From positions 14,827,820-14,891,819 of the forward strand of contig NC_135248.1 in assembly GCF_947623445.1 (NCBI RefSeq): a stretch of 64,000 nt of DNA, written 5' to 3'. Below, piece by piece: positions 14,014 to 44,396 of the stretch (positions within the stretch are counted from its first letter, which is position 1; the number at the start of each line of letters is the position of its first letter). The stretch comes from Clavelina lepadiformis (Eukaryota > Chordata > Ascidiacea > Aplousobranchia > Clavelinidae). The position numbers and the translations under genes were made by a program. Under the pieces are notes generated by a model. The model worked only from the letters and a program-made list of their open reading frames with translations, did no database searches and had not been told where the DNA came from.

Positions 14014-17000
14014 TTATATAGGTTTGAAATTAATATAAATTCCATCCGTGGATTTCAGCACCAGCTGAGGACTCATTTCTGGAGTAGGTAGGTTGTCCAG
14101 AGACATCTTATATCGTCGCAGGGCTTGAGCCAAAACAACCTTCATTTCGTTCATCGCAAAATTCTGCCCAATGCAGTTTCTAAACAGATGAACAGGTTAA
14201 AAAATGAGAGAAAAAGTAAACTGTAGGAAACCGGGGGTTATTTACAGACTAAATAATGAGGAGCTGAAGGAAGGACAAAGTAAAAGAAAAAAGGTAAAAT
14301 TAACAATTCAAGCAAAATGCTTCGGATTCAGTCAGAAAGTTTTATTCGATAACTTGCAGGAATCGTGCAATGTTACTTCGTCATAATCAAAATGCAAACC
14401 TCGACCCGGCCGAAAACGGAAGGTATGTGAGTGGGGGGCGCTTTGCCGTGTTCTCTTTTGAAAATCTTTCGGGGATAAACTCCTGTTTGGAAAGAAATAA
14501 CAAATATTGTTACATGTAGAATAAGTGACATTCCAACCAAAGCTGCATTTTTTCATGTTACCCGATTATCTTCAAGTTTAATACAAACTGGCTTGAAGAT
14601 TTGACCGAATTAATACGTACTTCAACTTTTTCCCATAAATTGACATTCCGATGAAGGGTGAATATGTGGACAACGGCAGATGTGCCTTTGGGGATGTCCC
14701 CGCCTGATTTGTTAAATTCACTTTCCATTGGAAGGTCTTCTTTGAGCTGTCGAGCAATCAGCCACACCGGGGGATACAGGCGCAAGCTCTCCTTTATAAA
14801 CATAGTTAGGTACTCAAGCTTGGGTAGATCTGACCTAATGGAGATGTAAGTTAGGTTTTAACCTTTCAGCGAAATCATAGCACCTACAAACCATAAAACT
14901 GGAAACAAGGTTAAGTGGATACACGAGCGCTATAATATTATAATTATTAATGGATACTACACAAAATTAATTAATCAGTCACCATTGCACATTCAGATTG
15001 TTGCCAATTACTTCTTGGACTTCCTTCCTACATTGCTCTTGAAATCCTGGATATTTTGCCAAATTATACAAAGCCCATGATATCCCTGAACAAAAACCGT
15101 ACATTAAGTAGATAAATCTAAGAGGATGATTTTGCAATCAAAATTCTTGGCCTAGTTGCTTCACCAAGACCAAAATAAGAACATAAACCAGCAGTTATGC
15201 AAATAAAATCTAAAATGTGACTGCATGCTACATTTTAAACAGAAGACTTTTCTTACCACTTGATGTTGTGTCGTGACCTTCAAATAAAAAAGTGTCCACT
15301 TCGTCTCTTATCTCTTTATCACTTAACCCAGAACCATCTTCATCCTTTGAGACAAACATATAAAGAAAACAACAATGTTGGCGCTTTTGCTATGTGGTTG
15401 CTAACAATGTACAAACATCAAAATATTGACAGAGTTATCAAAGAATCAAGCAATCAATGGTGGATTGCTCGAATTCTTCCAAAAAAAACCTATTCTTAAA
15501 TTTACTTTTGCTTTTAGAAGAATATCAATAAAGTCCAGAAGCTTCTTCCGTTTTCTACCAGAATCATCCTTCAAAGTTGGATCACTGCTTTCGGTGTTTA
15601 TTTGGTCAGTTTTTAGGCAGTTACGCCGACTTTTTATAATCTATCAAAATGACTTCATTATTGAGTTTAGGCATTCAACGGCATCACTTCTGTTATCAGC
15701 CACATTATGAAAATACCCGAAGAAACCTTTAGTCAACACTTAAGCCAAACCAAAAAAATCCATGTTAAAAAAATTGCCAAATAATCTTGAGTTTTGAAAT
15801 GTCATCGTTTCAACAGAACAAAGGTCAGAAAAATGAGAATAAAACCATTTACGGTTCCCAGATGAAGTTTATGAAAGAGGTCAAACCTTTTCAGTGTACG
15901 CATGAACAAAGTTAACTTGTTTTCGGAACTTCCATCCAACAGGCGAAATCCAAAATATCCAGTCAATCAACAAGATTGGATATTTGAATCGAAGCATTGT
16001 AATTTCACCCAGAATCTGTACCGCTTTGATATAATTCTGTTCCGCTCTGAATAAAAAAAAAATAGGACTTATTACATTCACGTTTGCATCAATCAGTCTT
16101 AACTTCCAAACCAATCCCCCTAAACCTAAACCCTTGTCACACTAATATCACTAACTTGCCGTTTCATGCTACTGAGTTCAGCAGTAAAGTCAATTCAAAC
16201 TTACACTGCATTTTGGCAATCGGTGTGTGATGACATGGCGCATTGCATCATTGTGTTTAGAGTTAGAAATCCAACATCTTTGAATACTTCTATCGGCTCA
16301 TCTACAACTGCTGCCCATTTGTCCAGCATTTCTCTTGCACAGTTGTTAAAGATGGGAATATACCTCAAAATAATTTAAATCGGCTTTTACGCATCATTTC
16401 AGCCATTTGGAATTACTTAAACATGCCCTAAACTTAAACTACAATGTAGCAAGTTGTGGGAAAAGATGGCAACCAGCAATGTAAAATTGAGACAATTGAC
16501 TTGTACTCGTGTCAGAGCAACCTAACCACTAACCAGTTGACTTGACATAAATGAAGCAGATAATCAAGTGGAGTCTTAGTGTTTTAACAAAGCTGTAAGA
16601 TAATTGCTTTCAAGTTGAAGTTACAGTTTCTTAAATTTGACCTACTTTCCAAATAGTTGATTTAAAGAGCTTTTTGTGTCCAATCAGATGACCGCAAAGC
16701 TTTCTCAAAAAACAGAGGCGTGACGACTGTTTCATAATTCATTACAACATTTCACTGTTTGTTGAAAATGGGTGGACATGCAACATTGTTCACTGAACAA
16801 AACAATGAAAAGACTTAACTTGCAACTACACAGCACACACATAAACTTGATAAAATTTTCAGGGATGCCAGTCGCAGAAAATAGAAAAGTTGCTAATTAG
16901 CGCTTATGTATGATGTACACACGTTTGATTTCATTGAGTTTAACTTTTCGAAAAAAATCATTTGTACAAATTTAATCAAGTATATATGGTACATATCTCT

Positions 17001-18077
17001 TACGATGTAAGAATGTTGAAATGAAATGCAGGTGTGATGAGACGACGATGTCGATGCCAATGCTTTCCGCTACTCGTAAGCAATCCCTTCCCGATCCAAG
17101 GCTCTAAAAATCTGTACCCCCATTTACCCTTCGGAGCTAGAAAGAAAATATGTCATTTAACATTCCGATACAAGTTGAGGCCACAAGTTCAAGTTTTATA
17201 CATAATTTACCCCTCTGCTGCCTCAGGGACGTTCATCTTGAAAGGCAGTTAACTTTTTTGAGAGAACATTTCAAGGAACATATATACTACAAAGGTGACA
17301 TGACTAACTGTTTTATTGCCATTTGAAGGTACCTCTTTTGAAAGTTTTGAAACCCCTACTACAGGTGTCTATGCAGTATGCATCACAAACTAATATCAAC
17401 TGAAAACGTTGGGGAAATTCTTCTCCTTGCCACGACAGCATTTATTCACATACATTCAAATATATCTACAGGATTGTCAACAAAAAACTAGAGTTGACGT
17501 CCCCTTGACTCTGCCTGGTGTACCTCAACTACAAACATTTAAATCTTACCGGAGCTTGCCAGTACAGGCTTGATCACTTCAGGATGATAAAGATGCAAAA
17601 AGGAGAGATTTTTCACTACTTGGAAGTTAAATAGTCCAGGAAAATGAGAAGTCCGACCTGCTGCCTTTAAAAATCCTTCTTCATTTTGGGGGTACTGCAA
17701 TAAAGCTCTTAGTCAGTGTAATTCTTACATAATAGAAATTAACATTTAATGGATTAATCAACAACTGGATTACTGCATAGGTTTTTGAGTCACTAGTTTC
17801 TAATCCACATATAGTAAAATGATATATAGTTAAATGAGGCTAAAAATTTTATTTGTATTCTGCTTACAAAGTGTGTGTGTCCTTTCAGCCAATGCAAGGA
17901 GCTATATACACTTTTTTTTAGGTGAAACCCAGATACTGTGTCAAGCTGTTTAGTCAGTTGCCGCGAAGAATTGAACATAGAAATCAAACGATGCAGAAGA
18001 AGAACAATAAGTGAGAAGATCAAAAGGTCCAGGCTCAAGTGGGAGAGGATGTACCCACTGCACCATTGTTGGCTCAT
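14014..18077 (-). CDS. CYP4-like: Cytochrome P450 family 4 (CYP4F-like), gene B, complete copy
   Basis: Same predicted activity as gene A. Exons in gene order: 17868-18077, 17550-17694, 17004-17136, 16205-16363, 15887-16046, 15506-15640, 15257-15344, 14983-15085, 14621-14834, 14400-14482, 14014-14179. They give 531 residues with all phases matching gene A. Visible motifs: membrane anchor [22 protein letters not shown] in helix [15 protein letters not shown] (Glu336, heme-linking), ESLR at 393-396 and FSAGSRNCIG with heme ligand Cys479. ATG 18077 is the first in-frame start and gives a normal N-terminus. Exons 1-10 lie inside the tandem duplication (copy 1). The last exon (14014-14179, with the heme cysteine) lies just outside it, so this is the only copy of gene B that can encode a whole P450. 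The initial segment may use a nearby acceptor at exon 3, but the chosen one matches gene A residue by residue. Confidence 0.95.
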
Positions 18078-21000
18078 AATAAACAGTGTTTAGCAGGGAG
18101 AAACTTTACCGACATTTAAGTTAGCTGAAATAAATTTGTAGAGATGAGTAGTTACATGGAGTACGCTCTCAATGCCATGAAATAACCACTATATTTGTGA
18201 GCACAAGATAACAAATTCAACATAAAAATTAATTTAGTATTTTTTCTTCACAAAAGGTCACGGCAAGACAATGATATATGATGCTCCGCTGTTGTCACAA
18301 AACAGCACTCTTCTAATTTATCAGCAACTTCATGATTTCACACTTGCAGTTTTTAAGGCTAACACACAGCTGTGGAAGTGTAAACTCACAACATCACAAT
18401 TCTTCTGCTATACTCACAAACGTACAGAATAGTTAACAATGGCTACATAAAACAAGAGATATTATAGAAGTTATTGTGAAATATTGATACAAAGTAAGGA
18501 TATCTACAATTTGTGCATCTCTGTGTACTTTCTGCTCATTTTGGCAAGCAGAGATTTCACAGAGCAGTTTCTAAATAAGTGCTAGGTACAGAAAGTAGTG
18601 GCTGCATTATTTTAAACCATTTTGCTAACATATGTGTAGTAAGGCACAACCTTTCACATAACACAGCTAGATGCCTTATTGCAAGTTGATGGGCAAGTAA
18701 AAGGTAATCGGAAATTTTCCACAGAGCTCGCATATTATCCCCATCTTGACTACGCTTGTACAGCTTTAGATTCAAAACAGCAGAGTAACAACCTAACTTT
18801 TTGAAATCATTATGCGCCAGGTATAGACAGTCAAGTGATATGATTGGCTGGTATTCATGTCAGTTTTTGAAGTAAATTGTGTGCGAAAAGACACATATTT
18901 TGGCATGCACAGAAACCTTAATTCTTTGTGTATTTATCATAACTTTCCCTTTTTTGCTTCCGGTGAAGCAGAAAAGGGAAATTTGGCTTCTGTTCGACTT
19001 TCGTTTGGCAAAAGAGAAATTTGGCTTTTGTTTAATTGGTTGGAGTGAACTTCAAAAAGTTTGGCGTGCACATTGAGCCTGTTGTGTTTGTGTACCATTA
19101 CCACATATTCTGCTACAGGTGAATATGTAACGATTTTACGCCAACATAGTCCCGAAAACTACACAATGTTTTTCGAATATCGTTCCTTTACTGTGTAAAG
19201 AAATTGACGTGTTAGCCACCTGTGCAAAATTTTCATAAGCTGATGTCCAAAACACTTGCGATTCAAAAAAGAATCAAAGGGGGTTGAAAATAATTTCTAT
19301 TGTTAAGTGTAAGCAAACGGAAAAATCTTGCCAGTCAAAACAAGCTTAGAAAGGTTCTTTTCACTGCTAGATCTTCAACAAAGGTTTGTGTTGTGCTTAA
19401 GCATAAAAACCGGTAAATACAAAAAAATTTAAGAACATATGCAATCGCAAAGACTACTCACAATGTCAAATTACAATGTACTTATAGGCTTATCGCTTAC
19501 GACTATCTCTATTTGAAACAAGCGTGTGCCTAACCTAACCCGATCTGCAGAGTTGGACAAGTGCGCACTCAAATTTGGTTACTAAAGTTACAGTTATATT
19601 CAGTAGCACCCTTCAGATGCAACAACAAGCAGGTTTATGTAAACTTAGCTGAAGTTTGCATGCTACTACCCAATTTTTGACATAGTTGTTAAATGCATGT
19701 TTACATAATTCATAGCAATTCTTTAGCAGAAAACTTTTGGGTTTGGTGGCCGTGCTGAAGCTTATATCTTTTTTACATTCTCTGATTGGTCCGTAATGCA
19801 CGTTTTTGACCTCAAGGCCATGTCACATTTTTCCCGTCCAATTTGTGGAAATTATTGCTGATAACTACTAACATGTTTGCGACTACTTATCAGCATCAGC
19901 AAAATTTATTCGTTCCTCACATTGAAGACGAAAAATAAAATGAATGACAGGCTGACAGGGGCTAAATCATCAAATTCAGTACCTGGCAGCCTGTGAGTGC
20001 GCACTTGCAGTGCACTTTTAGGTCTCTTGCGGAGTCAAGATTTTGTTGAAAAAGACTGAAATATGAGGCCTGGCTCCTAATGAAAGCTTCAATGTGGGCT
20101 ACTGGATATTTGCAGTTAATGATATCGATTTTTAAAGGTTGTGTGTTTTCCTTGCAGGCTAACCTAATTCAGAATAAACCCGGCCCCTCTGTTTGGTCGT
20201 AGCCATAAGACTTTTACAACCTGTACTACGTGCATTGTCCCAGCTTATTTCATCTTTTATAACAACCATAGGCAATAAATGAAAGGTACTATTGCAACAG
20301 CATGTAGTTAAATCATCCAATATCAGTGCAGTAGCGCTGGCCTACCAGCCTGCTAATAGTATAAACTGGTTGTTTCAAACCAGCAGGGCCTCAGGGGTCT
20401 CTTACGTCTTATAGGCTAATGTACTTCTGCACTGTGATTATGATGTAATAATTCCTTAACACTCGATCCTGATATGGGCACGCGAAAGTAAAGGAGTCTC
20501 AGACAGGGGAAGCTGCACACAGTTTTGTAGGATTTAGGACTGCTACCGTACTCTTCGATCCTTATTCATAAACTACTTGTTATTTTGCTTCCAATTTGTT
20601 AACGGGGAATTTCCCTTCAGCGAGTCGAAAACAACAACAAATCAAATCATTTTCAGGCACAGCCCCAAACGATGTAAACAAATCTGGTGTTTAAATCTCT
20701 TTGTTCAACCCAAGTGCTTCCAATTAAAAAAAAATGAATAAAAAAATATTGAGCGCTTTGAAAGAAAAAACAGAAAACTGAAATGTTTAGTGTTTTGTTT
20801 TATTTGTTTTGGACAAAAATTACAGAAGTAAATATTTTTACGAGCCGCCCCTGCTGATGATGCTGTTCTCACGAAATCATCCGTCTTAACTACTTAATTC
20901 AGCAAGCAAGCAAAGTGTAGCCTATTGTGTACTTTAAGGCAACTACAGGACTTGAAAATGGTTGTTTACAGAATGGCTCTGGTTATCAACGTCTTGGCTT

Positions 21001-21504
21001 ATGACATCAAAAATGATGATCTTCACTCACCAGCTAAGAAACCAGTTGTAAACAAACTCGATGTCGAACGAAGCTTGGAAATATTAAAGTTGCTCTTTTA
21101 AATTTTGTGTGCAATATTGTCGTAACATTCCGTAGGCTATGGGTTTGGCTACCGTGCTAAGCTTCTTTCGTAGTGCTACCACTGTAGTTCACATTAATCA
21201 CATAATGCACGTTTTTAACTCTTCAAGGCCCTACCGCTTTGATTGATTGTATGTGAGCGTAGACTACTTTTTTGACTATGCTGAAGCAAGGTGAGGTCAA
21301 CATGATCGTTTCCGATCCAGATGTTTTCCAAACGTAGGCTTATGACGTAGCATAGAGTCACGTGGTTATGGTTCGGTTGTCACAAAGTAGACAAATCAAT
21401 TTCAATCATGATTGCCACGGTATATCATAAATTCCGTAAAAGAAATTTTTACTCCGTTGAAAGTGTGTAGTGTTGGTTTCAAGTGGATGACTACCGCAGG
21501 TTAA
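18078..21504. other. Intergenic region with a dispersed repeat pair
   Basis: About 3.4 kb between CYP4 gene B and the MS4A-like gene, both on the minus strand. It should hold the CYP4 promoter and the MS4A 3' UTR. Short open frames (18557-18775, 18857-19076, 19613-19801, 20957-21100) have no recognisable domain, and their identity in copy 2 (33195 onward) is uninformative because the duplication is so recent. A pair of diverged direct repeats is present at 19739-19824 and 21141-21235. They share ggtttgg..ccgtgct..aagctt and taatgcacgttttt followed by caaggcc. Confidence 0.5.
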
Positions 21505-24500
21505 TTATATGGAATAGGGTGGTGGATGAGATGGATTTCCCTCTGCTGAAGCTCGCATACTGTTGAAAGCTTGTTGTTGTTTCTGTTGGATGGCGTCAGA
21601 GTCTAATTGATCAAGTGCCATGGCTTGGCCTAAATGGGCGGTAGTCGTCGGTGGAAGTGCTGGTGTAGCAGGTTGTGGCATTCCCCTTAGTACCGTTTGA
21701 ACAACGTAACCCGTCTGTTGTTGGTCAGGCTGCACATCTGCAAGCAAAGGCTGCAAATTTTTTACCATTTCAAAAGAGAAGAACTGAACACGTGACACGG
21801 AACTTTCTGTAACGACTTACTTTGAACATACGCCGGTGGCTGACCGGTCGTGTTAGCAATGTACATTACCTGGTGGTTAGGAACGGAATAAATCTAGTAA
21901 TCACATGTTAAATCTTAAAACCTAAATTTGATTGAATTAACATCGAATATTAATTGTCGAACCTGATTTTAGAAAACACTCCTTACCTGTCCACATCCTC
22001 CACCGCAACATCCATGAGGATTCACATAACACGTCAACGATGCGCTTGCAATAAGGAGGATAAACAATACCATGGAAGCAGCAATATTCACGACAGTTAG
22101 TCCAAACGCCAAACTCTGCCGAAATAGGGAGGAGATTACTTCTTTGAAATATATGAAGAAAAATATCTACAAGATCACGCACCAATGTGGCATCTGAAAC
22201 CATCCCAAGTTCGAACCCGAAGAGTATTGCGGAGAATACAGCTGTAGTGATTGCAAAACCCATATGGCAATTGACCTAAAAACAATTAGACATCTCGTTT
22301 GTAACTGACGGATCTTCACTTTCTCGTATTTGAATCTACTCACAATACAAGGCGATGCACTTTTTCTACCAGCCGCTATTCCAAGTCCCCCAGCAACGAC
22401 TGCCTAAACATAAAATTTTTAAAAAATCCATAATTTACTGCGCTTAGCACTTTAATACGAAGAACAGACTTGAAAGTGTCGATCGTTTGTTTGAGTATTT
22501 TATAGTTCTTACCCAAACTCCACACCATAGTCCTTGAGACCGACCGTATATGTAGAAAAAGCTAAATGTCCAATTTCGGTGGATAGATAGACCGGCCACC
22601 CCCAATACGATGCATAATGATCCAAGCACCACTTCTACAGCCTATTGCAATTTCTTCCGTAAATAATGTAAAATTACACATTCAAATCTTAAAGACTTAT
22701 CGCGCATGCTCTATGCATATGTCATTACACTCAGATCACTTTAATATGCTTAAAGTGAGGCGCAATTCCAAGAACCAGTTGGCACCAATCTCCAGAAATC
22801 AAAAAGTAGCGGCCAGTAAACATGCCAGTGTAAGGATTTTTAATAAGATGTAGTAGTTAAACAGTTAGGCCTATTACCAAAAATCTATCGCAAAGAGCAT
22901 ACCGTTGTTGTATTGGTCCTTGTTAGTACCTATGCAATGCAGTGCAGTCTTGGATTTAGCTAGTCCGGTAATTACGGTAAAAACAAGAATACTCCGCCAG
23001 TTCATGTACTGTACTATGCTGAATACTAATCTATCTATGGTCTATGGAGAGGCCATATTCCATCTAAAACGCGTTAGTGGTGTACCGACACTTAATCACG
23101 CGACACTTGATCACGCGACGCTTAATCACCGACACATAATCACTAGGACATTTAATCACGCGACACATAATCACTAGGACATTTAATCACGCGACACATA
23201 ATCACTAGGACATTTAATCACGCGACTTGGATACTTAATCACGCGACATTTAATCACGCGACATATAATCACTTGGATGTCGGAAAAGCGTGAGGAAAAT
23301 TCAGTAATTCAAGCTCGTGTGCATCTCTCTGTGGGAATGGCGATGTGGATTGCTTTTAAAATTGGCCTAAAGCCAAGGGCTGTTAGTCTTTCTTTTAGAA
23401 CTCCCCGACAATTGTCTTTGACTCCGTTGCGCCGGCTTTCTCTATAATGTTTCTTTAAATCAACACCAGCTTCATAAAGTCTAATTGTTATATTGTCCGA
23501 AGTAAGTTGTATCACAATAGAAACATTTTCATCATCTTTTCACATTTAAACAAAACCATAACCATGTGTAGAGACAAGAAGGGGAGATTTTAACCAAACC
23601 TTAGTTTTTGTACAAACACATTAGCCAATCAGGAAATAACATGTCATTTTGCATTGCTACGTATAACCTATGTAATATTAATATCTAACATTATTCTATT
23701 GTCACAACGTGCAACGTGCACAAATGCAACGTGCAACGTTTCTGCAAGGAATTGCTGGTACTCAACCTTCTATTCCAATGCGGTACAAGGCACTGAAACT
23801 GCGCGTGCAAAACACAGTTGACCGTTATCTGTCAAGCGAGATTTTAGTGCAGTTGCTTACATTTCCCATGCATAACATTGCTGTGAATTGTAAATGTAAA
23901 TAAACATTGTAAATGTGTGATTAAATGTCGCGTGATTAAATGTCCTAGTGATTATGTGTCGCGTGAATAAATGTCCTAGTGATTATGTGTCGCGTGATTA
24001 AGTGTCGCGTGATTAAATGTCCTAGTGATTATGTGTCGGTGATTAAACGTCGCGTGATCAAGTGTCGCGTGATTAAGTGTCACCAAACCTTAGCTAGCCT
24101 ACCACACCTTCTGTACCTACAGTAGAGCTATAGAGTTTTGGTAATAACTGTTCAACCACTACATATTATCAAAAATTCTTTCACTAGCAGTATGTTTACT
24201 TTACTACTATATATTCTTTGATTTAAGGCCTACTTGTTTTTAGATTTGCCCTTCACTTTAATTATAATCGACCGCTGACGTATCGGATACATTTCCTGTT
24301 TTATGTCTCAGCTATTCCTTACAAAGTAAACTAATCTTCTTAACATCAATAAGCATTCACGAGCAATCAGCAAGATAGATCATTTCCAGCCGCCCGAAAT
24401 TAACCATTGAAAGTGCTCACCGCGATTCCTCGGAGTTTTCTGGCTTTACTGGAGTTGAAAGCCTGTTGGGGTTGAATGAAAATTTGTGCTTGAGGCTGCA

Positions 24501-24549
24501 CCACCGCTGATGTCGGCGTGTTCGACGGGTAGGAAGCGGTCATGTTCAT
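21505..24549 (-). CDS. MS4A/CD20-like four-transmembrane protein, copy 1
   Basis: Predicted membrane protein of the MS4A/CD20-like superfamily; ligand and function cannot be told from sequence. Exons in gene order: 24421-24549, 22513-22641, 22344-22403, 22183-22275, 21987-22115, 21821-21893, 21505-21737. Total 281 residues with consistent phases. The N-terminus is cytosolic and Gln/Ser-rich. It leads into KARKLRGIAAVEVVLGSLC, the family's usual run into TM1. Helices lie at about 44-63, 80-99, 111-131 (MGFAITTAVFSAILFGFELG) and 143-167 (VNIAASMVLFILLIASA). A cysteine cluster (CCGGGC) follows TM4. The C-terminal tail is Pro/Gln-rich with two PPxY motifs, PPAY at 199-202 and PPPY near the end, which typically bind WW domains of Nedd4-type ligases. 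I start at the ATG 24549; the frame continues upstream without another ATG. Intron 1 holds the foldback transposon. Confidence 0.85.
23078..24089. mobile_element. Foldback DNA transposon with arrayed terminal inverted repeats
   Basis: A 1012 bp insertion in intron 1 of MS4A copy 1, absent from copy 2 (empty site 37725-37728). It is flanked by the 4 bp target-site duplication TTAG (23074-23077 and 24090-24093). Both ends are long inverted repeats built from tandem short units: taatcacgcgacac alternating with ataatcactaggacat, a higher-order period of about 31 bp. The left arm spans about 23078-23275 and the right arm about 23918-24089. The interior has no transposase. Its two short frames (23309-23515 minus, 23709-23903 plus) match nothing I know. 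This fits a non-autonomous foldback element, family unassigned. Confidence 0.85.
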
Positions 24550-26487
24550 GGCAAATCTTAAGTTGATGCACTGTAGCGAAGTCAATCAATTACGAACGTT
24601 GAAATCATTAAATACAACTAAGCTACGGCTATTAGTTTTTTGACATTTCGACCATTGCTGAAAATTGGCCTATGTATGATACCTCGACTATCTATCAGAC
24701 ACAATAGGCCTACTTGAAGGTATTTCTACATACGCTTTCCTACACAAAATGATTTTGGTTGAACCTCATGTCTGCCGTTTACTGTAATAACCCGAGGGCA
24801 CTTTTATTACAGTATTTTGACAATTAAACTTTAATATCTCTAGATTACGTGTACGTGATACTAACTCTATAGGATAATTATACATACGTGTTATAGTTAA
24901 GTTATCTATATCAATTTCCTTGTCGACATGTTGTGTACGTGTAGGCTTAATGTACAAATGGCCAGAGGCAATATTTTCCGCGCTGGTCCTGCCCGCTTCA
25001 TCGATTGTCACAAGGAGACAGCTGTATATAACGTGACCAGGGCCAAACAGGATTATTATAGTCTACTTGCAAAGTGAGGTGTACAATCGATGACTCCAGA
25101 ATGACCAGGGAAAAATAACATATTTGCGGACCACGGAATGACGATTTTGTCGGTGGAAAAAGTGATTCGCTGCGTCAGGTTGTGAAGTTCATCATTTCTT
25201 TGCCGGTTTAAACGTTTTCCACAGTTTCGAACGAATTTTCTCCACACTTGTTTCTGGACCGAGAAAAATCGTTGCTCTAAAATAAGACTTAACTATCTGT
25301 AAAACTGTGACGTCCAACGGGAAGTAGTCTGATGTACTTTCAGTAACTTCACATGAGAGTTGCGATAAGTGTAATGTTTCCGTAAGATCGCATGTAGCGA
25401 AAGGAAAGTATAGACGAGAGCTAGCTGGTAACCATGTTGGCCACTTGCAAAATAAATGATGACAAAAATGTAGGTTTCTCGTTACTTCAAGAAAGTTGGA
25501 ACTCTTGCAATTTCCTACGCCATTTCCTGCGCTCCCAAACACGTCCGGAGGGCAAGCAATATTTTTAAAGCATGGTTTAGGTCGTCAGATGTGCAAAATG
25601 AAAGAATGTGGCTTTTTTCATGGAGAACTGCTTAGTTCAAATCTACCACCGCTTTGAAACACGACGTCAATAGGAACAAGCATCATAAAACCATGGCAAT
25701 ACGCAGTAAGGTTCACAACGCAAGGATACTACCCAGAGCCGGAGAAAGGGCCACATGCTAAAACGAGGCCCCCAAATATGACTGAAAGCTTAATATTATG
25801 CATAGAAACAACTAATACTGACCCCACGCCTTTCCCCTTTCCACATTCATATTTATTTATCTTAATGATACGGTGATGACGAGAGAGCTTGGAAATTTTC
25901 TGATCACAGTTATTTTGTTTTTTTTGCTTGCAAGTTAGCCCTTTCTATTCATATACAGCTTCGTTCATCGTGATTATTCACAATACCGTTGGCCTACGCT
26001 AACTTAGTATGCGCACTGTACAATATGGTTTGCGGACGGCAGCTTTCTTGCCAGCGACATCTCCATTTCTCACCGATCACTGTCTGATTTTCAATTGTCG
26101 TTTCAGATTTTCGCTGATGGGTTTATGACACTGATCCTGGACGAGGAAAACAAAACAATGCAGTAGCGTCATGCTTAATTGTGATGCTCGAATGGTAAAG
26201 GTCTCGGGTTTGAATATTGTTATTGTTTGGTTTTGTTTTGTTCAAATTAATTTTTAATGTAATTTAGTCATGAGAGGTGAGAGTTTGGGTCGGTGGGGAT
26301 TAGTTTTAAATTAATTTAGAGTTCGGAAAAATTGTGATTTTTAGTTGAAAAACGACGTTTGTTTCTAATTGCAACCTAGCACCGGAACTGATACCACCTG
26401 CGATGATTATACACCCACATTGGTCTGAAACTAAACCATGTTTAAAATGATTTCAATTTTTGGAAAGAGAGAAAAAGACTGATTAAA

Positions 26488-32715: not shown

Positions 32716-35700
32716 AATAAACAGTGTTTAGCAGAGAGAAACTTTACCGACATTTAAGTTAGCTGAAATAAATTTGTAGAGATGAGTAGTTACATGGAGT
32801 ACGCTCTCAATGCCATGAAATAACCACTATATTTGTGAGCACAAGATAACAAACTCAACATAAAAATTAATTTAGTATTTTTTCTTCACAAAAGGTCACG
32901 GCAAGACAATGATATATGATGCTCCGCTGTTGTCACAAAACAGCACTCTTCTAATTTATCAGCAACTTCATGATTTCACACTTGCAGTTTTTAAGGCTAA
33001 CACACAGCTGTGGAAGTGTAAACTCACAACATCACAATTCTTCTGCTATACTCACAAACGTACAGAATAGTTAACAATGGCTACATAAAACAAGCGATAT
33101 TATAGAAGTTATTGTGAAATATTGATACAAAGTAAGGATATCTACAATTTGTGCATCTCTGTGTACTTTCTGCTCATTTTGGCAAGCAGAGATTTCACAG
33201 AGCAGTTTCTAAATAAGTGCTAGGTACAGAAAGTAGTGGCTGCATTATTTTAAACCATTTTGCTAACATATGTGTAGTAAGGCACAACCTTTCACATAAC
33301 ACAGCTAGATGCCTTATTGCAAGTTGATGGGCAAGTAAAAGGTAATCGGAAATTTTCCACAGAGCTCGCATATTATCCCCATCTTGACTACGCTTGTACA
33401 GCTTTAGATTCAAAACAGCAGAGTAACAACCTAACTTTTTGAAATCATTATGCGCCAGGTATAGACAGTCAAGTGATATGATTGGCTGGTATTCATGTCA
33501 GTTTTTGAAGTAAATTGTGTGCGAAAAGACACATATTTTGGCATGCACAGAAACCTTAATTCTTTGTGTATTTATCATAACTTTCCCTTTTTTGCTTCCG
33601 GTGAAGCAGAAAAGGGAAATTTGGCTTCTGTTCGACTTTCGTTTGGCAAAAGAGAAATTTGGCTTTTGTTTAATTGGTTGGAGTGAACTTCAAAAAGTTT
33701 GGCGTGCACATTGAGCCTGTTGTGTTTGTGTACCATTACCACATATTCTGCTACAGGTGAATATGTAACGATTTTACGCCAACATAGTCCCGAAAACTAC
33801 ACAATGTTTTTCGAATATCGTTCCTTTACTGTGTAAAGAAATTGACGTGTTAGCCACCTGTGCAAAATTTTCATAAGCTGATGTCCAAAACACTTGCGAT
33901 TCAAAAAAGAATCAAAGGGGGTTGAAAATAATTTCTATTGTTAAGTGTAAGCAAACGGAAAAATCTTGCCAGTCAAAACAAGCTCAGAAAGGTTCTTTTC
34001 ACTGCTAGATCTTCAACAAAGGTTTGTGTTGTGCTTAAGCATAAAAACCGGTAAATACAAAAAAATTTAAGAACATATGCAATCGCAAAGACTACTCACA
34101 ATGTCAAATTACAATGTACTTATAGGCTTATCGCTTACGACTATCTCTATTTGAAACAAGCGTGTGCCTAACCTAACCCGATCTGCAGAGTTGGACAAGT
34201 GCGCACTCAAATTTGGTTACTAAAGTTACAGTTATATTCAGTAGCACCCTTCAGATGCAACAACAAGCAGGTTTATGTAAACTTAGCTGAAGTTTGCATG
34301 CTACTACCCAATTTTTGACATAGTTGTTAAATGCATGTTTACATAATTCATAGCAATTCTTTAGCAGAAAACTTTTGGGTTTGGTGGCCGTGCTGAAGCT
34401 TATATCTTTTTTACATTCTCTGATTGGTCCGTAATGCACGTTTTTGACCTCAAGGCCATGTCACATTTTTCCCGTCCAATTTGTGGAAATTATTGCTGAT
34501 AACTACTAACATGTTTGCGACTACTTATCAGCATCAGCAAAATTTATTCGTTCCTCACATTGAAGACGAAAAATAAAATGAATGACAGGCTGACAGGGGC
34601 TAAATCATCAAATTCAGTACCTGGCAGCCTGTGAGTGCGCACTTGCAGTGCACTTTTAGGTCTCTTGCGGAGTCAAGATTTTGTTGAAAAAGACTGAAAT
34701 ATGAGGCCTGGCTCCTAATGAAAGCTTCAATGTGGGCTACTGGATATTTGCAGTTAATGATATCGATTTTTAAAGGTTGTGTGTTTTCCTTGCAGGCTAA
34801 CCTAATTCAGAATAAACCCGGCCCCTCTGTTTGGTCGTAGCCATAAGACTTTTACAACCTGTACTACGTGCATTGTCCCAGCTTATTTCATCTTTTATAA
34901 CAACCATAGGCAATAAATGAAAGGTACTATTGCAACAGCATGTAGTTAAATCATCCAATATCAGTGCAGTAGCGCTGGCCTACCAGCCTGCTAATAGTAT
35001 AAACTGGTTGTTTCAAACCAGCAGGGCCTCAGGGGTCTCTTACGTCTTATAGGCTAATGTACTTCTGCACTGTGATTATGATGTAATAATTCCTTAACAC
35101 TCGATCCTGATATGGGCACGCGAAAGTAAAGGAGACTCAGAGTCTCAGACAGGGGAAGCTGCACACAGTTTTGTAGGATTTAGGGCTGCTACCGTACTCT
35201 TCGATCCTTATTCATAAACTACTTGTTATTTTGCTTCCAATTTGTTAACGGGGAATTTCCCTTCAGCGAGTCGAAAACAACAACAAATCAAATCATTTTC
35301 AGGCACAGCCCAAAACGATGTAAACAAATCTGGTGTTTAAATCTCTTTGTTCAACCCAAGTGCTTCCAATTAAAAAAAAAATGAATAAAAAAATATTGAG
35401 CGCTTTGAAAGAAAAAACAGAAAACTGAAATGTTTAGTGTTTTGTTTTATTTGTTTTGGACAAAAATTACAGAAGTAAATATTTTTACGAGCCGCCCCTG
35501 CTGATGATGCTGTTCTCACGAAATCATCCGTCTTAACTACTTAATTCAGCAAGCAAGCAAAGTGTGGCCTACTGTATTGTGTACTTTAAGGCAACTACAG
35601 GACTTGAAAATGGTTGTTTATAGAATGGCTCTGGTTATCAACGTCTTGGCTTATGACATCAAAAATGATGATCTTCACTCACCAGCTAAGAAACCAGTTG

Positions 35701-36156
35701 TAAACAAACTCGATGTCGAACGAAGCTTGGAAATATTAAAGTTGCTCTTTTAAATTTTGTGTGCAATATTGTCGTAACATTCCGTAGGCTATGGGTTTGG
35801 CTACCGTGCTAAGCTTCTTTCGTAGTGCTACCACTGTAGTTCACATTAATCACATAATGCACGTTTTTAACTCTTCAAGGCCCTACCGCTTTGATTGATT
35901 GTATGTGAGCGTAGACTACTTTTTTGACTATGCTGAAGCAAGGTGAGGTCAACATGATCGTTTCCGATCCAGATGTTTTCCAAACGTAGGCTTATGACGT
36001 AGCATAGAGTCACGTGGTTATGGTTCGGTTGTCACAAAGTAGACAAATCAATTTCAATCATGATTGCCACGGTATATCATAAATTCCGTAAAAGAAATTT
36101 TTACTCCGTTGAAAGTGTGTAGTGTTGGTTTCAAGTGGATGACTACCGCAGGTTAA
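32716..36156. other. Intergenic region of copy 2
   Basis: Duplicate of 18078-21504, with the same dispersed repeat pair (34377-34462 and about 35793-35887) and no supported gene. Small differences include a 10 bp tandem repeat of the gactcaga type near 35132 and a few-base insertion near 35574, which lengthens a short plus frame (35562-35753). That shows the frame is not conserved. Confidence 0.45.
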
Positions 36157-38187
36157 TTATATGGAATAGGGTGGTGGATGAGATGGATTTCCCTCTGCTG
36201 AAGCTCGCATACTGTTGAAAGCTTGTTGTTGTTTCTGTTGGATGGCGTCAGAGTCTAATTGATCAAGTGCCATGGCTTGGCCTAAATGGGCGGTAGTCGT
36301 CGGTGGAAGTGCTGGTGTAGCAGGTTGTGGCATTCCCCTTAGTACCGTTTGAACAACGTAACCCGTCTGTTGTTGGTCAGGCTGCACATCTGCAAGCAAA
36401 GGCTGCAAATTTTTTACCATTTCAAAAGAGAAGAACTGAACACGTGACACGGAACTTTCTGTAACGACTTACTTTGAACATACGCCGGTGGCTGACCGGT
36501 CGTGTTAGCAATGTACATTACCTGGTGGTTAGGAACGGAATAAATCTAGTAATCACATGTTAAATCTTAAAACCTAAATTTGATTGAATTAACATCGAAT
36601 ATTAATTGTCGAACCTGATTTTAGAAAACACTCCTTACCTGTCCACATCCTCCACCGCAACATCCATGAGGATTCACATAACACGTCAACGATGCGCTTG
36701 CAATAAGGAGGATAAACAATACCATGGAAGCAGCAATATTCACGACAGTTAGTCCAAACGCCAAACTCTGCCGAAATAGGGAGGAGATTACTTCTTTGAA
36801 ATATATGAAGAAAAATATCTACAAGATCACGCACCAATGTGGCATCTGAAACCATCCCAAGTTCGAACCCGAAGAGTATTGCGGAGAATACAGCTGTAGT
36901 GATTGCAAAACCCATATGGCAATTGACCTAAAAACAATTAGACATCTCGTTTGTAACTGACGGATCTTCACTTTCTCGTATTTGAATCTACTCACAATAC
37001 AAGGCGATGCACTTTTTCTACCAGCCGCTATTCCAAGTCCCCCAGCAACGACTGCCTAAACATAAAATTTTTAAAAAATCCATAATTTACTGCGCTTAGC
37101 ACTTTAATACGAAGAACAGACTTGAAAGTGTCGATCGTTTGTTTGAGTATTTTATAGTTCTTACCCAAACTCCACACCATAGTCCTTGAGACCGACCGTA
37201 TATGTAGAAAAAGCTAAATGTCCAATTTCGGTGGATAGATAGACCGGCCACCCCCAATACGATGCATAATGATCCAAGCACCACTTCTACAGCCTATTGC
37301 AATTTCTTCCGTAAATAATGTAAAATTACACATTCAAATCTTAAAGACTTATCGCGCATGCCCTATGCATATGTCATTACACTCAGATCACTTTAATATG
37401 CTTAAAGTGAGGCGCAATTCCAAGAACCAGTTGGCACCAATCTCCAGAAATCAATAGTCGCGGCCAGTAAACATGCCAGTGTAAGGATTTTTAATAACAT
37501 GTAGTAGTTAAACAGTTAGGCCTATTACCAAAAATCCATCGCAAAGAGCATACCGTTGTTGTATTGGTCCTTGTTAGTACCTATGCAATGCAGTGCAGTC
37601 TTGGATTTAGCTAGTCCGGTAATTACGGCAAAAACAAGAATACTTCACCAGTTCATGTACTATACTATGCTGAATACTAATCTATCTATGGTCTATGGAG
37701 TGGCCGTATTCCATCTAAAACGCGTTAGCCAGCCTACCACATCTTCTGTATCTACAGTAGAGCTATAGAGTTTTGGCAATAACTGTTCAACCACTACATA
37801 TTATCAAAAATTCTTTCACTAGCAGTATGTTTACTTTACTACTATATATTCTTTGATTTAAGGCCTACTTGTTTTTAGATTTGCCCTTCACTTTAATTAT
37901 AATAATCGACCGCTGACGTATCGGATACATTTCCTGTTTTATGTCTCAGCTATTCCTTACAAAGTAAACTAATTTTCTTATCATCAATAAGCATTCACGA
38001 GCAATCAGCAAGATAGATCATTTCCAGCCGCCCGAAATTAACCATTGAAAGTGCTTACCGCAATTCCTCGGAGTTTTCTGGCTTTACTGGAGTTGGAAGT
38101 CTGTTGGGGTTGAATGAAAATTTGTGCTTGAGGCTGCGTCACTGCTGATGCCGGCGTGTTCGACGGGTAGGAAGCGGTCATGTTCAT
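36157..38187 (-). CDS. MS4A/CD20-like four-transmembrane protein, copy 2
   Basis: Paralogue of the gene at 21505-24549. Exons in gene order: 38059-38187, 37165-37293, 36996-37055, 36835-36927, 36639-36767, 36473-36545, 36157-36389. They give 281 residues. Exons 2-7 encode the same protein as copy 1: four membrane helices, the CCGGGC cluster and the PPAY and PPPY motifs. Exon 1 differs at four residues in the cytosolic N-terminus (T to A, V to T, A to T, F to S), and its donor is gtaagc instead of gtgagc. Intron 1 is short here (about 0.77 kb) because the foldback element is absent. Both copies appear able to encode full proteins. Confidence 0.85.
37725..37728. other. Empty insertion site of the foldback element
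   Basis: A single TTAG between acgcg and ccagcc. In copy 1 it is duplicated around the 1012 bp foldback transposon. It proves that the element is a discrete insertion and fixes its ends and target-site duplication. Confidence 0.85.
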
Positions 38188-40117
38188 GGCAAATCTTAAG
38201 TTGATGCACTGTAGCGAAGTCAATCAATTACGAACGTTGAAATCATTAAATACAACTAAGCTACGGCTATTAGTTTTTTGACATTTCGACCATTGCTGAA
38301 AATTGGCCTATGTATGATACCTCGACTATCTATCAGAGACAATACTTGAAGGTATTTCTACATACGCTTACCTACACAAAATGATTTTTGTTGAACCTAA
38401 TGTCTGTCGTTTACTGTTATAGCCCGAGGGCACTTCTATTACAGTATTTTGACAATTAAACTTTAATATCTCTAGATTACGTGTACGTGATACTAACTCT
38501 ATAGGATAATTATACATACGTGTTGTAGTTAAGTTATCTATATCAATTTCCTTGTCGACATGTTGTGTACGTGTAGGCTTAATGTACAAATGGTCATAGG
38601 CAATATTTTCCGCTGGTCCCGCCCGCTTCATCGATTGTCACAAGGAGACAGCTGTATATAACGTGACCAGGGCCAAACAGGATTATTATAGCCTACTTGC
38701 AAAGTGAGGTGTACAATCGATGACTCCAGAATGACCAGGGAAAAATAACATATTTGCGGACCACGGAATGACGATTTTGTCGGTGGAAAAAGTGATTCGC
38801 TGCGTCAGGTTGTGAAGTTCATCATTTCTTTGCCAGTTTAAACGTTTTCCACAGTTTCGAACGAATTTTCTCCACACTTGTTTCTGGACCGAGAAATATC
38901 GTTGCTCTAAAATAAGACTTAACTATCTGTAAAACTGTGACGTCCAACGGGAAGTAGTCTGATGTACTTTCAGTAACTTCACATGAGAGTTGCGATAAGT
39001 GTAATGTTTCCGTAAGATCGCATGTAGCGAAAGGAAAGTATAGACGAGAGCTAGCTGGTAACCATGTTGGCCACTTGCAAAATAAATGATGACAAAAATG
39101 TAGGTTTCTCGTTACTTCAAGAAAGTTGGAACTCTTGCAATTTTTTACACCATTTCCTGCGCTCCCAAACACGTCCGGAGGGCAAGCAATATTTTTAAAG
39201 CATGGTTTAGGTCGTCAGATGTGCAAAATGAAAGAATGTGGCTTTTTTCATGGAGAACTGCTTAGTTCAAATCTACCACCGCTTTGAAACACGACGTCAA
39301 TAGGAACAAGCATCATAAAACCATGGCAATACGCAGTAAGGTTCACAACGCAAGGATACTACCCAGAGCCGGAGAAAGGGCCACATGCTAAAACGAGCCC
39401 CCCAAATATGACTGAAAGCTTAATATTATGCATAGAAACAACTAATACTGACCCCACGCCTTTCCCCTTTCCACATTCATATTTATTTATCTTAATGATA
39501 CGGTGATGACGAGAGAGCTTGGAAATTTTCTGATCACAGTTATTTTGTTTTTTTTGCTTGCAAGTTAGCCCTTTCTATTCATATACAGCTTCGTTCATCG
39601 TGATTATTCACAATACCGTTGGCCTACGCTAACTTAGTATGCGCACTGTACAATATGGTTTGCGGACGGCAGCTTTCTTGCCAGCGACATCTCCATTTCT
39701 CACCGATCACTGTCTGATTTTCAATTGTCGTTTCAGATTTTCGCTGATGGGTTTATGACACTGATCCTGGACGAGGAAAACAAAACAATGCAGTAGCGTT
39801 ATGCTTAATTGTGATGCTCGAATGGTAAAGGTCTCGGGTTTGAATATTGTTATTGTTTGGTTTTGTTTTGTTCAAATTAATTTTTAATGTAATTTAGTCA
39901 TGAGAGGTGAGAGTTTGGGTCGGTGGGGATTAGTTTTAAATTAATTTAGAGTTCGGAAAAATTGTGATTTTTAGTTGAAAAACGACGTTTGTTTCTAATT
40001 GCAACCTAGCACCGGAACTGATACCACCTGCGATGATTATACACCCACATTGGTCTGAAACTAAACCATGTTTAAAATGATTTCAATTTTTGGAAAGAGA
40101 GAAAAAGACTGATTAAA

Positions 40118-40929
40118 GACTAAGGTACCTGTACCGAATAAGGCCCACCTAACACTTTTTTGAAAATAATTCAAGAACCATAAATGAGAATAGACTGAAA
40201 AATCGTATTCTATTAGTGAGGGTATATGACTACAACATATTAAAACCACAATACCTGACAACCCCTAAAAAATTTTTATAAAGAAATTAAAAATTCCAAA
40301 AAAAGGGGCCTTATTAGGAGCATAGGCTCCTAATAAGGCCCACCAATTTTGTGAGTATTTTGATTCAAAACATAGTAATAGACAACATATAACATTATTA
40401 GAAATTTCACATTTTAAGTTGTACAAACATTTAAAAAGATTCCACTAGGCGCATCAAAGTAATTGCAACAATTTGCCAACTGAGGACTGGAACCACTCTT
40501 GAAGTCTGGACATCAATTAGCCAAGCATCTTGTATGGGCCTTATTAGGCGCATGTGGCATCCACGAAAAAATGTCACATTTTTATCATCAGAAAAATTTT
40601 AGCAAAAAAAAGTGCATTATCCTTTTCAATACTAAGTTGGTTGTTACATGAAAATTTCAGCCGGCTGACAACAGTTCATTTAACCTGCCAAATTCTCACT
40701 TACTTTTTTTCTAAATTAACAAAACCACCTTAACTGCAAATATCAAATTTTTGTTGTGCTCTAGCGAATCGGTCGATCACGTGACAAGGATGAAATCTGG
40801 TAAACCATCATGAATTTATATTAGTTATTATGTAGGGACAAAATCTTTCATTTATTTGCACGGGTTTGCGAAATATGAGCAATGGGCCTTACTAGGGACC
40901 GGGCCTTATTCGGTACAGGTACCTTAGTC
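40118..40929. mobile_element. MITE with 29 bp terminal inverted repeats (copy 2)
   Basis: Duplicate of the element at 26488-27299, with the same ends (gactaaggtacc..ggtaccttagtc) and internal aaggccc palindrome. Confidence 0.8.
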
Positions 40930-41402
40930 AAAGTAAGCCAATGCTTTTTACTGTAATAAGCGAAGAGCAATAATATTTTATGCGATTTAACAACCAAAGT
41001 TAACCATTAATTTAAGGCAAAGCAAATATATACGAAGCATATACATACAACGTTTTTGACCGTATAATCTTGGACAACGTTATAATCTTGGAACAAATAC
41101 TCGTAAAGCAGTTTCCAAAGCTGAAAAACGTCTTTGATGTTTTGGGAACAGTCAAGTTACTGGCGTTCGCTTGAACCGACTGGTCATAATAGCTTTCTGA
41201 GTTCGCTACCGAAGTGCAGCTAGTTGTTAGGGAATTGCAACGGAGTAAGTCGACTAGTTTTGGGCGAATGAATGTCTTCATCTTACGTAATTTTGAGAGC
41301 AAATTTGCACCTTAATCAGTGAGGTGTGAGCCAGAAATTATTGCAATAAAGATTTTCAAAAGATTTTCTTTTCAGACTAGGAAGCTTAGGATAACTTATA
41401 AG

Positions 41403-41640
41403 CAATGTTCCCTCTAATTTTTCACGAGTCTGAGCAAACACACTAACTCCCTGAGCGGTCCCTTGGACCACTGTGAGCAACATCAGACGAGCCACGTGCG
41501 CACTGTGGCCATTATTATGTGTTTATTTTATTTTCAATTCAGGTTGGAATTTTTTCTTGTGCGCAGCACAGATTTTCTGTGCGCGGAGACCGTGTCAGCA
41601 GTGCGCATTTGCGCATGCGCGCAGCTTAGAGGGAACATTG
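41403..41640. mobile_element. hAT-type MITE (copy 2)
   Basis: Duplicate of 27773-28010 with the same ends and the same cttataag target-site duplication, again about 90 bp upstream of the unknown gene. Confidence 0.85.
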
Positions 41641-41734
41641 CTTATAAGTTATTGGAGGACAATCAGCGTTCACCTTTATTTTTGAAGTTCTTTTGGTAGA
41701 TACACAAAGAGGTTTCTGATTTAAGAATTGAAAG

Positions 41735-42425
41735 ATGGCCGACAAACAAGCCAGAACCGATACAGGCACACCAGTACAGAATACATTTAACCAGTGCGAC
41801 TTTCGAAACAGCCCATTCAATCAAAACTCTTCACGCACAAACTACACATGTACAGATTTTACTTTACGATAGTTTTAAAAATGCGACATAACTTGCGAGC
41901 TAAAACGGACATGTTATTTATAACTTAATGTTCCAACTCGTCTGGTTGTGTTGTGTTCATCATAGCTAATTTTTTCTAACTGGCTAGAAATTTAAACCTG
42001 GAACTTTGTTTTTTACAGACAGGGGAGACAATTACTGTGAAGATGACGACACAACTATCCCACGGAACAGACGACAAAGTTTCAATGAGTATGACGGCAA
42101 CGCTGAATTTTTTAACTATCTCCGGGAGACGGCACCAGTCCCATCCAGCGAACAATCCCGGGTAATGACCGAACAAGCTTCGCCTGTTAGCCCGTTTGGT
42201 TTCGTGATCCATCCTCGCAATATTCCTTCTTCCGGATTTTCATCTAATGGTTGGAACCCACCGTTACAGCATATGATTCATCACTCATTGCATGATATGA
42301 GAATGAGGCAACATGGATCTCGCGACCTTGTACGCATTCCCAGAAGTCATCCTGCATCTGCACATAGAAGCCAGCCAGTCGCTATGAGACCTACAGTACA
42401 TGGCCCGAGATCTACTCACATATGA
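41735..42425 (+). CDS. Two-exon gene of unknown function, copy 2 (native stop)
   Basis: Not recognised. Exons 41735-41849 and 42019-42425 give 173 residues ending RSTHI and TGA. The acceptor here is ttttttacag, stronger than the tttttatag of copy 1. Since sequence beyond this stop continues into unduplicated DNA, this is presumably the ancestral form. The composition is polar, with an acidic patch after the junction of the exons and a His/Arg/Pro-rich tail; there is no membrane helix or cysteine pattern. The combined length is a multiple of three, which supports the two-exon model. Confidence 0.45.
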
Positions 42426-44396
42426 ACGCATGCTCGCGCTACTCCAAAAGTTGTGCATCGACGGAGATAAAGATTTATCGCTTTTTGGTCGGAAAAAATG
42501 TTTTGTGCTTTGATAAAACAAGGAAGGTTTTTTTGGACGGTAAAAGTTAATGACGCATTATAATCTTGTTACATACGCTGTTACATACGCTGTTACATAC
42601 GCTTGTTCTCTTCTGTACTGAGTCTTATTATTCTATAATCGGTTGAATGCATGGTTTTCAACCCAAAAATCTTTTTGTGTTTTTTCAAGCTGAGTTGTGC
42701 CGGGCTTCCATGTTATGATGCGTTTCGTTGTAAAAATGAATCAAGCGCATTTACTTTGCATATAAAACACCTGTGGTCGTTGTGAAAGTTTTTGTTATAT
42801 ACGTGTCACCTTTGCGAAATATGAATAACTTTTTCATGGAAGCAGTCTTGAAAATGTTGAGGAATAAGATTGGAAAGGTTTTTATTTGATGTCGTCCAGA
42901 AGGGCGGCATGGAAAAGGGCAAGGTAACAACACTTTATGATGTTAAATTTAGAGATCTGACCCAGTACAGTTCACATGGGGATCCACCGACTAAAATTTT
43001 ACAACAAAACATAACAAAGTTCAAGACCCTCAAAAAATCTCTGGTTGATATTTAATCACGACCGATTGACATCACTTTAGTGTGACGCGCATATTTATTT
43101 GAGACCAATGTAAAGAAACAAGTTGCCTAACCTATACCCATATATCACCACCCATAACGCAGTACCTGCGGATTTCCTGGACATGAGGTTATTTTTGTAG
43201 GGGATGCCCTGTAGGTATAACACAGATAGGTACAACACCGGCTCGTGCGAACCCATATATCATGAAGGTCGACACGAATGAATCCCGAATCTATTCGTAT
43301 TAGAACCAAACAATAAAATTTCCTCCAAAAGTAATCAACTCTTGCTTCTAAAATGACGTAAACGATAAACAAATCGCTTTCTTTCGAAAAATAGTGTTTA
43401 AAAAACGATCGTAAAAGCAAAATCGTTAGGAAAACGACCTTCATTGTAAATACTGCTGACTCTAGTTTAGCATTGTCGGGAAACTAGTTCATCATTTTTA
43501 ACTAAAGTCAGTAAATTTATAAGTAATATTGTATTCGTGTTCGCCATTGTTGGTATTCGTGTTCGCCTGAATCTTCCATAAAGGCGATATTTGGCGAATC
43601 TATTCTGGTTTGGGTTCGTATCGGCCCATCCCTACCAGTTAGTTAGCTATTGCGTCCATATAGACACAAAATTGCCCTCAGGTTATTGCCATTTTATATC
43701 TCTCTTCGCTGTGTGCGCCAGTTACATGCTCACTCATGCAATGCGCACTTTAGCGCTTGGTGATGTTTAACTTGTAGATTCAACAAAAGATTATTTGCTG
43801 CTCGCGTTATGTGTAGCAACGAGCTTGATGTTATATTGAAAGCCACGAACTCGATATAATTTGGGCAGTCTGCTAACTTATACCCAGGCCTACCTACGTA
43901 CTGCGAGTTGCTGTATTTTGAAGCAATCGAGTTATGATGTCAGGATACACTAAGCGAGTTTGATACAGCGTGAGAAAGAATCCGAGCGCAGCAGGTGCTT
44001 TATGAAACGCTGAACAACATAAACAACTCAAGATATGTACGTTGGGGTAGCTGTAGCTAACAAAATTGTTTAGTGCGGCGAAAATACCAGCAAGAGCAAC
44101 TACAAAAGTACTTTAAAGCATGTAGGACAATTGGATAGCGTTGCATGAATGTTTGGCGACTTGAAGTTAACTGTGGTGTTGTGCACTTTGTTGGGTACCA
44201 GAAACGAGACAGCCAAATTTATCGATAAACTAATCCCAACGGTTTTTAACTTCTTTATTTGTTTAAATCTCTTTTGATCACGATTTACTACTTTAGCTTA
44301 CAGCCATGAGTATGTAAAATAGTTCAAGTGTATGAATATAAACATTCAAGTGTATGAATAAATAAAGATTTACTACTTTACCTTACAGTCATAAGT
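42426..44396. other. Intergenic region with short tandem and direct repeats
   Basis: About 2 kb between the unknown gene and the CYP2-like gene. It contains three perfect copies of tgttacatacgc at 42567-42602. A pair of 33 bp direct repeats lies at 44282-44314 and 44367-44399, and the second ends on the CYP2 start codon. The stretch at about 43555-43636, ending ggcccatcccta, resembles one end of a hAT element, but no partner end was found. The frames at 42870-43055 and 43145-43444 have no recognisable similarity. Confidence 0.45.

What the first reader, a model, noticed from the sequence alone, without database searches (positions are those of the whole stretch)
14190..42436. Recent 13.6-14.6 kb tandem segmental duplication of a P450/MS4A block
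Two head-to-tail copies share gene order, intron sequence and MITEs, with only scattered differences. The duplication is young, perhaps polymorphic. It gives two potentially working MS4A-like genes, two copies of an unknown gene and one intact plus one truncated CYP4. Because the copies are about as similar as two alleles would be in a highly polymorphic ascidian, a false duplication from joined haplotypes must also be considered.
Basis: partly seen in the sequence, partly recalled or inferred. Interest (0 to 1): 0.7.

Follow-up and report, generated by a model that had tools for sequence, protein, structure and literature searches.

The report
Recent sea-squirt tandem gene-block duplication
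A sea squirt chromosome carries a 14-kilobase block of genes twice in a row; it looks like a genuine recent DNA accident rather than an assembly error, left one copy of an enzyme gene without its essential end, and is an ordinary kind of event.

Summary
Confirmed: two head-to-tail copies, A 14190-28806 and B 28816-42436, joined through a 9-bp filler. They differ at 85 of 13,592 aligned bases, by ten small indels, and by a 1,012-bp inverted-repeat element found only in A.

The host is Clavelina lepadiformis: C4 and C8 match published lengths to the base.

Differences are clustered: 14190-14642 and 22712-25184 differ by ~2.6%, the rest by ~0.3%. The second patch surrounds the element.

A joined-haplotype artefact is unlikely but not excluded. 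The window has no gap, the junction carries filler absent from both flanks, and probes of flanks and unit found one and two full-length hits among the candidates scored. Reads could not be examined.

Genes: CYP4-like A is intact; B lacks the haem-cysteine exon because the break lies in the last intron. Both CD20/MS4A-like genes are open, but that label is below Pfam's cut-off. In A an orphan ORF loses its stop and runs 19 codons on.

Side result: exon-limited gene conversion between neighbouring CYP4 genes.

Verdict: real, ordinary, recent tandem duplication, possibly polymorphic, with a history of exchange.

The parts
14190..28806 (+). copy A of the duplicated unit (14,617 bp)
   Evidence: self-BLAST and global alignment
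28807..28815 (+). 9-bp junction filler GTTAGGCTC between the copies, in neither outer flank
   Evidence: breakpoint alignment
28816..42436 (+). copy B of the duplicated unit (13,621 bp)
14190..14642 (.). divergent patch 1 at the left edge of A: 12 of 453 aligned sites differ from B (2.65%)
   Evidence: two-state model
22712..25184 (.). divergent patch 2: 37 of 1,448 aligned sites differ from B (2.56%); surrounds the element that only A carries
   Evidence: two-state model
23078..24089 (.). 1,012-bp non-coding-looking element with inverted arms made of subrepeats, in intron 1 of the MS4A-like gene of A; empty site in B near 37724
14014..18077 (-). CYP4-like gene, copy A: hand-built model of 11 exons, 531 aa; last exon 14014-14179 (haem cysteine) lies outside the unit
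29027..32715 (-). CYP4-like gene, copy B: exons 1-10 only, no haem-cysteine exon; 5 silent and 4 replacement codon differences from A in 476 codons
21505..24549 (-). CD20/MS4A-like gene, copy A: hand-built model of 7 exons, 281 aa
36157..38187 (-). CD20/MS4A-like gene, copy B: open, differs from A by 4 replacement and 2 silent codons, all in exon 1 (low end is the stop codon, inferred from the A model)
28358..28852 (+). unknown ORF, copy A: TCA where B has TGA; frame runs 19 codons further, across the junction
41988..42425 (+). unknown ORF, copy B, with stop TGA 11 bp before the end of the unit

Best explanation
It is a genuine, recent tandem duplication on chromosome 9 of Clavelina lepadiformis. 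One non-homologous event (end joining or replication template switching, inferred from the junction) joined the end of a 13.6-kb unit to its own start with 9 bp of filler. The left break fell in the last intron of a CYP4-like gene, so copy B lacks the haem-binding exon and is presumably a dead P450 (missing exon shown, loss of function inferred). The right break fell just past the stop codon of an unknown ORF. Afterwards the copies exchanged sequence with each other or with other haplotypes, leaving most of the unit ~0.3% different and two patches ~2.6% different (pattern shown, cause inferred). A 1-kb mobile element probably inserted into copy A, or into an allele that copy A later took up.
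For: Exact head-to-tail copies; junction filler found in neither flank and no long homology between the two boundary regions; no N in the window or in 10 kb on either side; flank probes with one full-length hit and two unit probes with two full-length hits each (in each call only 40 of 67 to 1,006 candidates were scored); break inside a gene whose missing exon is still present once, at the left end of A; clustered divergence; published assembly built from 117-fold HiFi reads, with purge_dups, curation and 0.6% duplicated BUSCOs.
Against: Divergence is of the size that two alleles could show, and clustered divergence is also expected between alleles. Reads, depth and the alternate haplotype were not available. 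HiFi fragments of 12-20 kb are about as long as the unit, so the true copy number could also be more than two. The mechanism rests on one junction.
Confidence: 0.8

Rival explanations
1. False heterotype duplication: A and B are the two alleles of the sequenced individual, placed in series by the assembler.
For: Overall divergence of 0.63% with patches at 2.6% is of allelic size; curation of this assembly removed 9 haplotypic duplications, so such errors did occur before curation.
Against: No gap in or near the unit; [quoted passage not shown] The junction has its own 9-bp filler and the copies end at the same points; flank probes found one full-length hit.
Confidence: 0.08
2. Real duplication, but older (about 2.6% diverged); gene conversion between A and B has homogenised most of it, except near the left breakpoint and around the 1-kb insertion, which blocks pairing.
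For: Both patches show the same divergence (2.65% and 2.56%), and the larger one contains the only large heterology; exchange between paralogues is seen next door. This is a sub-case of the best explanation, so the odds overlap with it.
Against: The right edge (25185-28806) is not divergent (14 of 3,622 sites). The conversion tract next door involves another gene pair.
Confidence: 0.35
3. Real and young duplication (about 0.3%); the divergent patches were brought in by recombination with diverged haplotypes, perhaps including single-copy ones. Also a sub-case of the best explanation.
For: Patch 1 lies at the outer left edge, where an exchange with a single-copy haplotype can start in the shared flank; no other full-length source of patch 2 turned up in the genome (two full-length hits, 40 of 128 candidates scored).
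Against: No population data; heterozygosity of this species was not measured here.
Confidence: 0.4
4. Unequal crossing-over between flanking repeats made the duplication.
For: Dispersed repeats are common around the locus.
Against: The two boundary regions share no long homology (best: 17 nt in inverted orientation) and the junction has filler.
Confidence: 0.03

Closest known systems
Young tandem segmental duplications / copy-number variants formed by non-homologous joining (general knowledge)
   Same: Head-to-tail order, near identity, junction with short filler, break inside a gene giving one complete and one truncated copy.
   Different: Nothing in kind. Divergence is strikingly two-level, with a mobile element inside the larger divergent patch.
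Cytochrome P450 family 4 (closest solved structure CYP4B1, 5t6q, E 9.8e-111)
   Same: Copy A matches Pfam p450 (355 bits, cut-off 22.8) and CYP4B1 over residues 61-531, with the haem-cysteine region.
   Different: Copy B lacks the last exon, hence the haem cysteine.
MS4A/CD20 family
   Same: Weak match to Pfam CD20 over residues 43-123 (E 3.7e-5) and to Fc epsilon RI beta over residues 17-123 (E 0.0043); hydrophobic segments.
   Different: Below Pfam's cut-off for this protein and for a C5 paralogue (24.3 and 20.4 against 27.9 bits). PMC2826416 (passages) concluded that invertebrates lack MS4A genes.
Allele-specific true tandem duplication described in PMC9516828 (passages)
   Same: Two copies in one contig without a gap.
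   Different: There read depth was known; here it is not.

Membership tests
Recent tandem segmental duplication | Adjacent copies in the same orientation, at least 1 kb and at least 90% identical, coding and non-coding alike | tested here: met
   13.6 kb, 99% identical
Recent tandem segmental duplication | Junction present in the DNA of the animal (spanning reads, depth) | not testable with these tools
   no reads or alternate haplotype available; only indirect support
Recent tandem segmental duplication | Polymorphic in the species | not testable with these tools
   one assembly only
Cytochrome P450 (CYP4), copy A | P450 domain with the haem-cysteine exon, open model | tested here: met
Cytochrome P450 (CYP4), copy B | Haem-cysteine exon present | tested here: not met
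   unit starts in the last intron; nothing downstream of the B donor restores it
MS4A/CD20 | Score above Pfam's gathering cut-off (PF04103) | tested here: not met
   24.3 bits against 27.9; paralogue 20.4
MS4A/CD20 | Four membrane spans | tested here: inconclusive
   hydropathy at threshold 1.6 gave three regions; the candidate span near residues 84-98 stayed below it
MS4A/CD20 | Sequence relation to a solved MS4A protein | tested here: inconclusive
   Fc epsilon RI beta E 0.0043 with the single protein, but 0.22 with a two-sequence profile

The most novel reading that the evidence does not exclude
The unit is a snapshot of exchange between young duplicates: one 1-kb mobile-element insertion in a single copy shields its surroundings from homogenisation and keeps a 2.6%-divergent island, including the replacement-rich first exon of an MS4A-like gene, inside a pair that is otherwise 0.3% different; the same locus also shows conversion of a single P450 exon between inverted neighbours.
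Probability: 0.3. Interest if true: 0.42.

Novelty: new member of a known kind. Interest (0 to 1): 0.25.

Why it matters
A duplicate this young shows how one breakpoint makes a complete and a truncated gene at once, and how sequence exchange and mobile elements may decide which parts diverge. It is also a good test case for telling real tandem duplications from joined haplotypes in ascidian assemblies. It does not change any general view.

Tried and rejected
Unequal crossing-over between flanking repeats: disfavoured, no long boundary homology. A template for the filler: no match of 6-12 nt in the four nearby stretches scanned. A third copy as donor for patch 2: no further full-length hit among the 40 scored of 128 candidates. 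A genome-wide Pfam CD20 search gave nothing, but 0 of 14 control genomes rang either, so it is uninformative. A two-sequence profile did worse against the PDB (E 0.22) than the single protein (E 0.0043). No absolute age is given, because I looked up no mutation rate for this species. No structure prediction was run. The upstream exons of the unknown ORF were not modelled. All gene models were built by hand from open frames and GT/AG sites, without RNA.

Papers: PMC10884593, parts 1 and 2 of 3 read (part 3, the remaining references, not read). PMC2826416 and PMC9516828, passages only. PMC12373286, abstract, section list and passages; it concerns lancelets and uses the Clavelina proteome only for orthology, so it does not bear directly on this locus. 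All other papers were seen only as search listings. Among the listings (2 of 2 papers; 10 of 10 papers), no title or start of abstract reports this duplication; that is the extent of the check.

Full report
What was checked. Self-BLAST of the window shows two head-to-tail copies, A 14190-28806 and B 28816-42436, exactly as reported. A global alignment gives 85 substitutions (58 transitions, 27 transversions), ten indels of 1-8 bp and one gap of 1,016 bp. With 13,592 aligned sites, substitution divergence is 0.63%.

Where it is. The window is C9:14827820-14891819 of a 209.06-Mb genome in 95 contigs. The Clavelina lepadiformis assembly kaClaLepa1.1 has nine chromosomes, 210,089,204 bp, 102 scaffolds, N50 25,070,715 and N90 19,509,797 (PMC10884593). 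C4 and C8 here have exactly these two lengths. C5, C6, C7 and C9 agree with the published values to the rounding; C1, C2 and C3 are shorter by about 5 to 10 kb (C1 by 5,500 bases). So the species is Clavelina lepadiformis, an aplousobranch ascidian; the small length and contig-count differences are unexplained.

Junction. Copy A ends ...GCATGCTCG, then comes GTTAGGCTC, then GAACAGG..., the start of B. The left flank before A ends ...AAACAGAT and the right flank after B begins CGCTACTCC, so the filler belongs to neither. No match of 6-12 nt overlapping the filler was found in the four nearby stretches scanned. The best similarity between the two boundary regions is a 17-nt inverted match. This is the usual appearance of end joining or template switching (general knowledge), not of unequal crossing-over between repeats.

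Is it an assembly artefact? Against: no N in the window or in 10 kb on either side. The left-flank probe has one full-length hit (its middle is a dispersed repeat with dozens of partial hits; 40 of 1,006 candidates scored). The right-flank probe has one full-length hit plus the expected 137-bp end of the other copy (40 of 458 scored). Two probes inside the unit have two full-length hits each, both here (40 of 67 and 40 of 128 scored). The published assembly used 117-fold HiFi reads, purge_dups and manual curation, and has 0.6% duplicated BUSCOs. In a systematic study, false duplicates were most often separated by a gap, and this was not found for true ones, among them an allele-specific tandem duplication (PMC9516828, passages). 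For: the divergence is of a size alleles could show, and no read or alternate-haplotype data could be examined. I put a false duplication at about 8%.

Divergence is mosaic. A two-state model gives 0.29% and 2.6%. The high state covers 14190-14642 (12 of 453 sites) and 22712-25184 (37 of 1,448); the rest has 22 of 8,069 and 14 of 3,622. None of 2,000 shuffles reached the observed maximum at windows of 400, 1,000, 1,600 or 2,500 sites. For the likelihood gain only 12 permutations were run: maximum 6.1 against 72.5. Patch 2 contains the element that only A carries. Two histories fit: import of diverged alleles by recombination with other haplotypes, or an older duplication homogenised except next to the left breakpoint and around the insertion. 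The non-divergent right edge speaks somewhat against the second. Clustering alone would also be expected between two alleles, so it does not argue against an artefact. I cannot decide between the two histories.

The element. 23078-24089 has inverted arms built of 15/31-bp subrepeats and is flanked by TTAG on both sides; B has one TTAG at the empty site. In the genome 40 of 829 candidates were scored; among them 17 near full-length copies, at 96-100% by that search, lie at 10.85-11.04 Mb on C3. The C3 copies compared again by BLAST are 99.3-99.7% identical to the window copy, with one partial copy at 95.0%; the 30 kb of C3 examined consists largely of tandem repeats. Copies elsewhere show 8-9-bp target duplications in four places or families (C3 array, L025, L026, L029), whereas truncated matches (L027, L033) show none clearly. 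TTAG at the window copy is shorter than these, so its flank is damaged or atypical. Insertion into A, or into an allele that A took up, is the simplest reading.

Genes. The hand-built CYP A model has 11 exons and 531 aa and is CYP4-like. The unit begins in its last intron, so B has exons 1-10 without the haem-cysteine exon. B differs by 5 silent and 4 replacement codons in 476. The MS4A-like model has 7 exons and 281 aa; A and B differ by 4 replacement and 2 silent codons, all in exon 1, which lies in patch 2. Its family label is weak: Pfam CD20 E 3.7e-5 but below the cut-off, PDB Fc epsilon RI beta E 0.0043 but 0.22 with a two-sequence profile, a paralogue also below the cut-off, three hydrophobic regions rather than four at the threshold used; and an earlier phylogeny held that invertebrates lack MS4A genes (PMC2826416, passages). 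The unknown ORF has no Pfam match and only these two matches in the genome (2 of 2 candidates). In A its stop is TCA instead of TGA and the frame runs 19 codons on across the junction. Whether the longer form is made is unknown, and the ORF itself is supported only by being open.

Side result. A CYP4 relative lies in inverted orientation at about 7.4-12.9 kb. One exon, which carries the [10 protein letters not shown] motif (I-helix, name recalled), is 98% identical over 97 nt to that of CYP A and CYP B, flush with the splice sites. Same-residue codons are identical in 29 of 31 there, against 66 of 169 in six other exon blocks; the remaining exon blocks were not compared, and the last of the six was compared without its gap. 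Elsewhere in the genome the seven other matches to that exon are 78-84% alike. This is best explained by gene conversion limited to the exon, and shows that paralogues exchange sequence here. It predates the A/B duplication or was spread to both copies.

Verdict. It is a recent tandem duplication of an ordinary kind, with a clean non-homologous junction and a mosaic history.

Noticed in passing
window 10618-10714 against 15252-15348 and 29880-29976: One P450 exon ([10 protein letters not shown] motif) of the neighbouring inverted CYP4 relative is 98% identical over 97 nt to that of copies A and B, flush with splice sites, while the other exon blocks compared have diverged (same-residue codons identical 29 of 31 against 66 of 169): exon-limited ectopic gene conversion.
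   Followed up: yes
G000 C3:10854258-11043436 (partly L012-L014, L030-L032): The 1-kb inverted-repeat element of copy A recurs at least 17 times near full length within 190 kb of C3, in stretches of tandem repeats; a mobile element seems to have been amplified as part of an array.
   Followed up: partly
G000 C5:5171062-5186402 (L045, L048, L049): Another MS4A-like gene is also present twice on one strand, about 14.5 kb apart, 94% identical over 3.1 kb. Further partial MS4A-like matches lie at C9:14.426 Mb, C9:14.786 Mb and C7:19.427 Mb.
   Followed up: partly
G000 C2:1998510-2030675: Three equally weak matches (74-78%) to a repeat of the unit, spaced 15.5 and 16.4 kb, hint at another tandem array.
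   Followed up: no
window 44358-47619 (+) and 49008-49553 (+): To the right of the duplication lie exons of a further, more distant P450 and a single-exon gene with ribosomal S4/S9 N-terminal and S4 domains (IMP3-like, recalled).
   Followed up: no
G000 against the published kaClaLepa1.1: The held genome is 1.03 Mb and 7 sequences smaller than published, and C1 is 5,500 bases shorter, although C4 and C8 match to the base.
   Followed up: no
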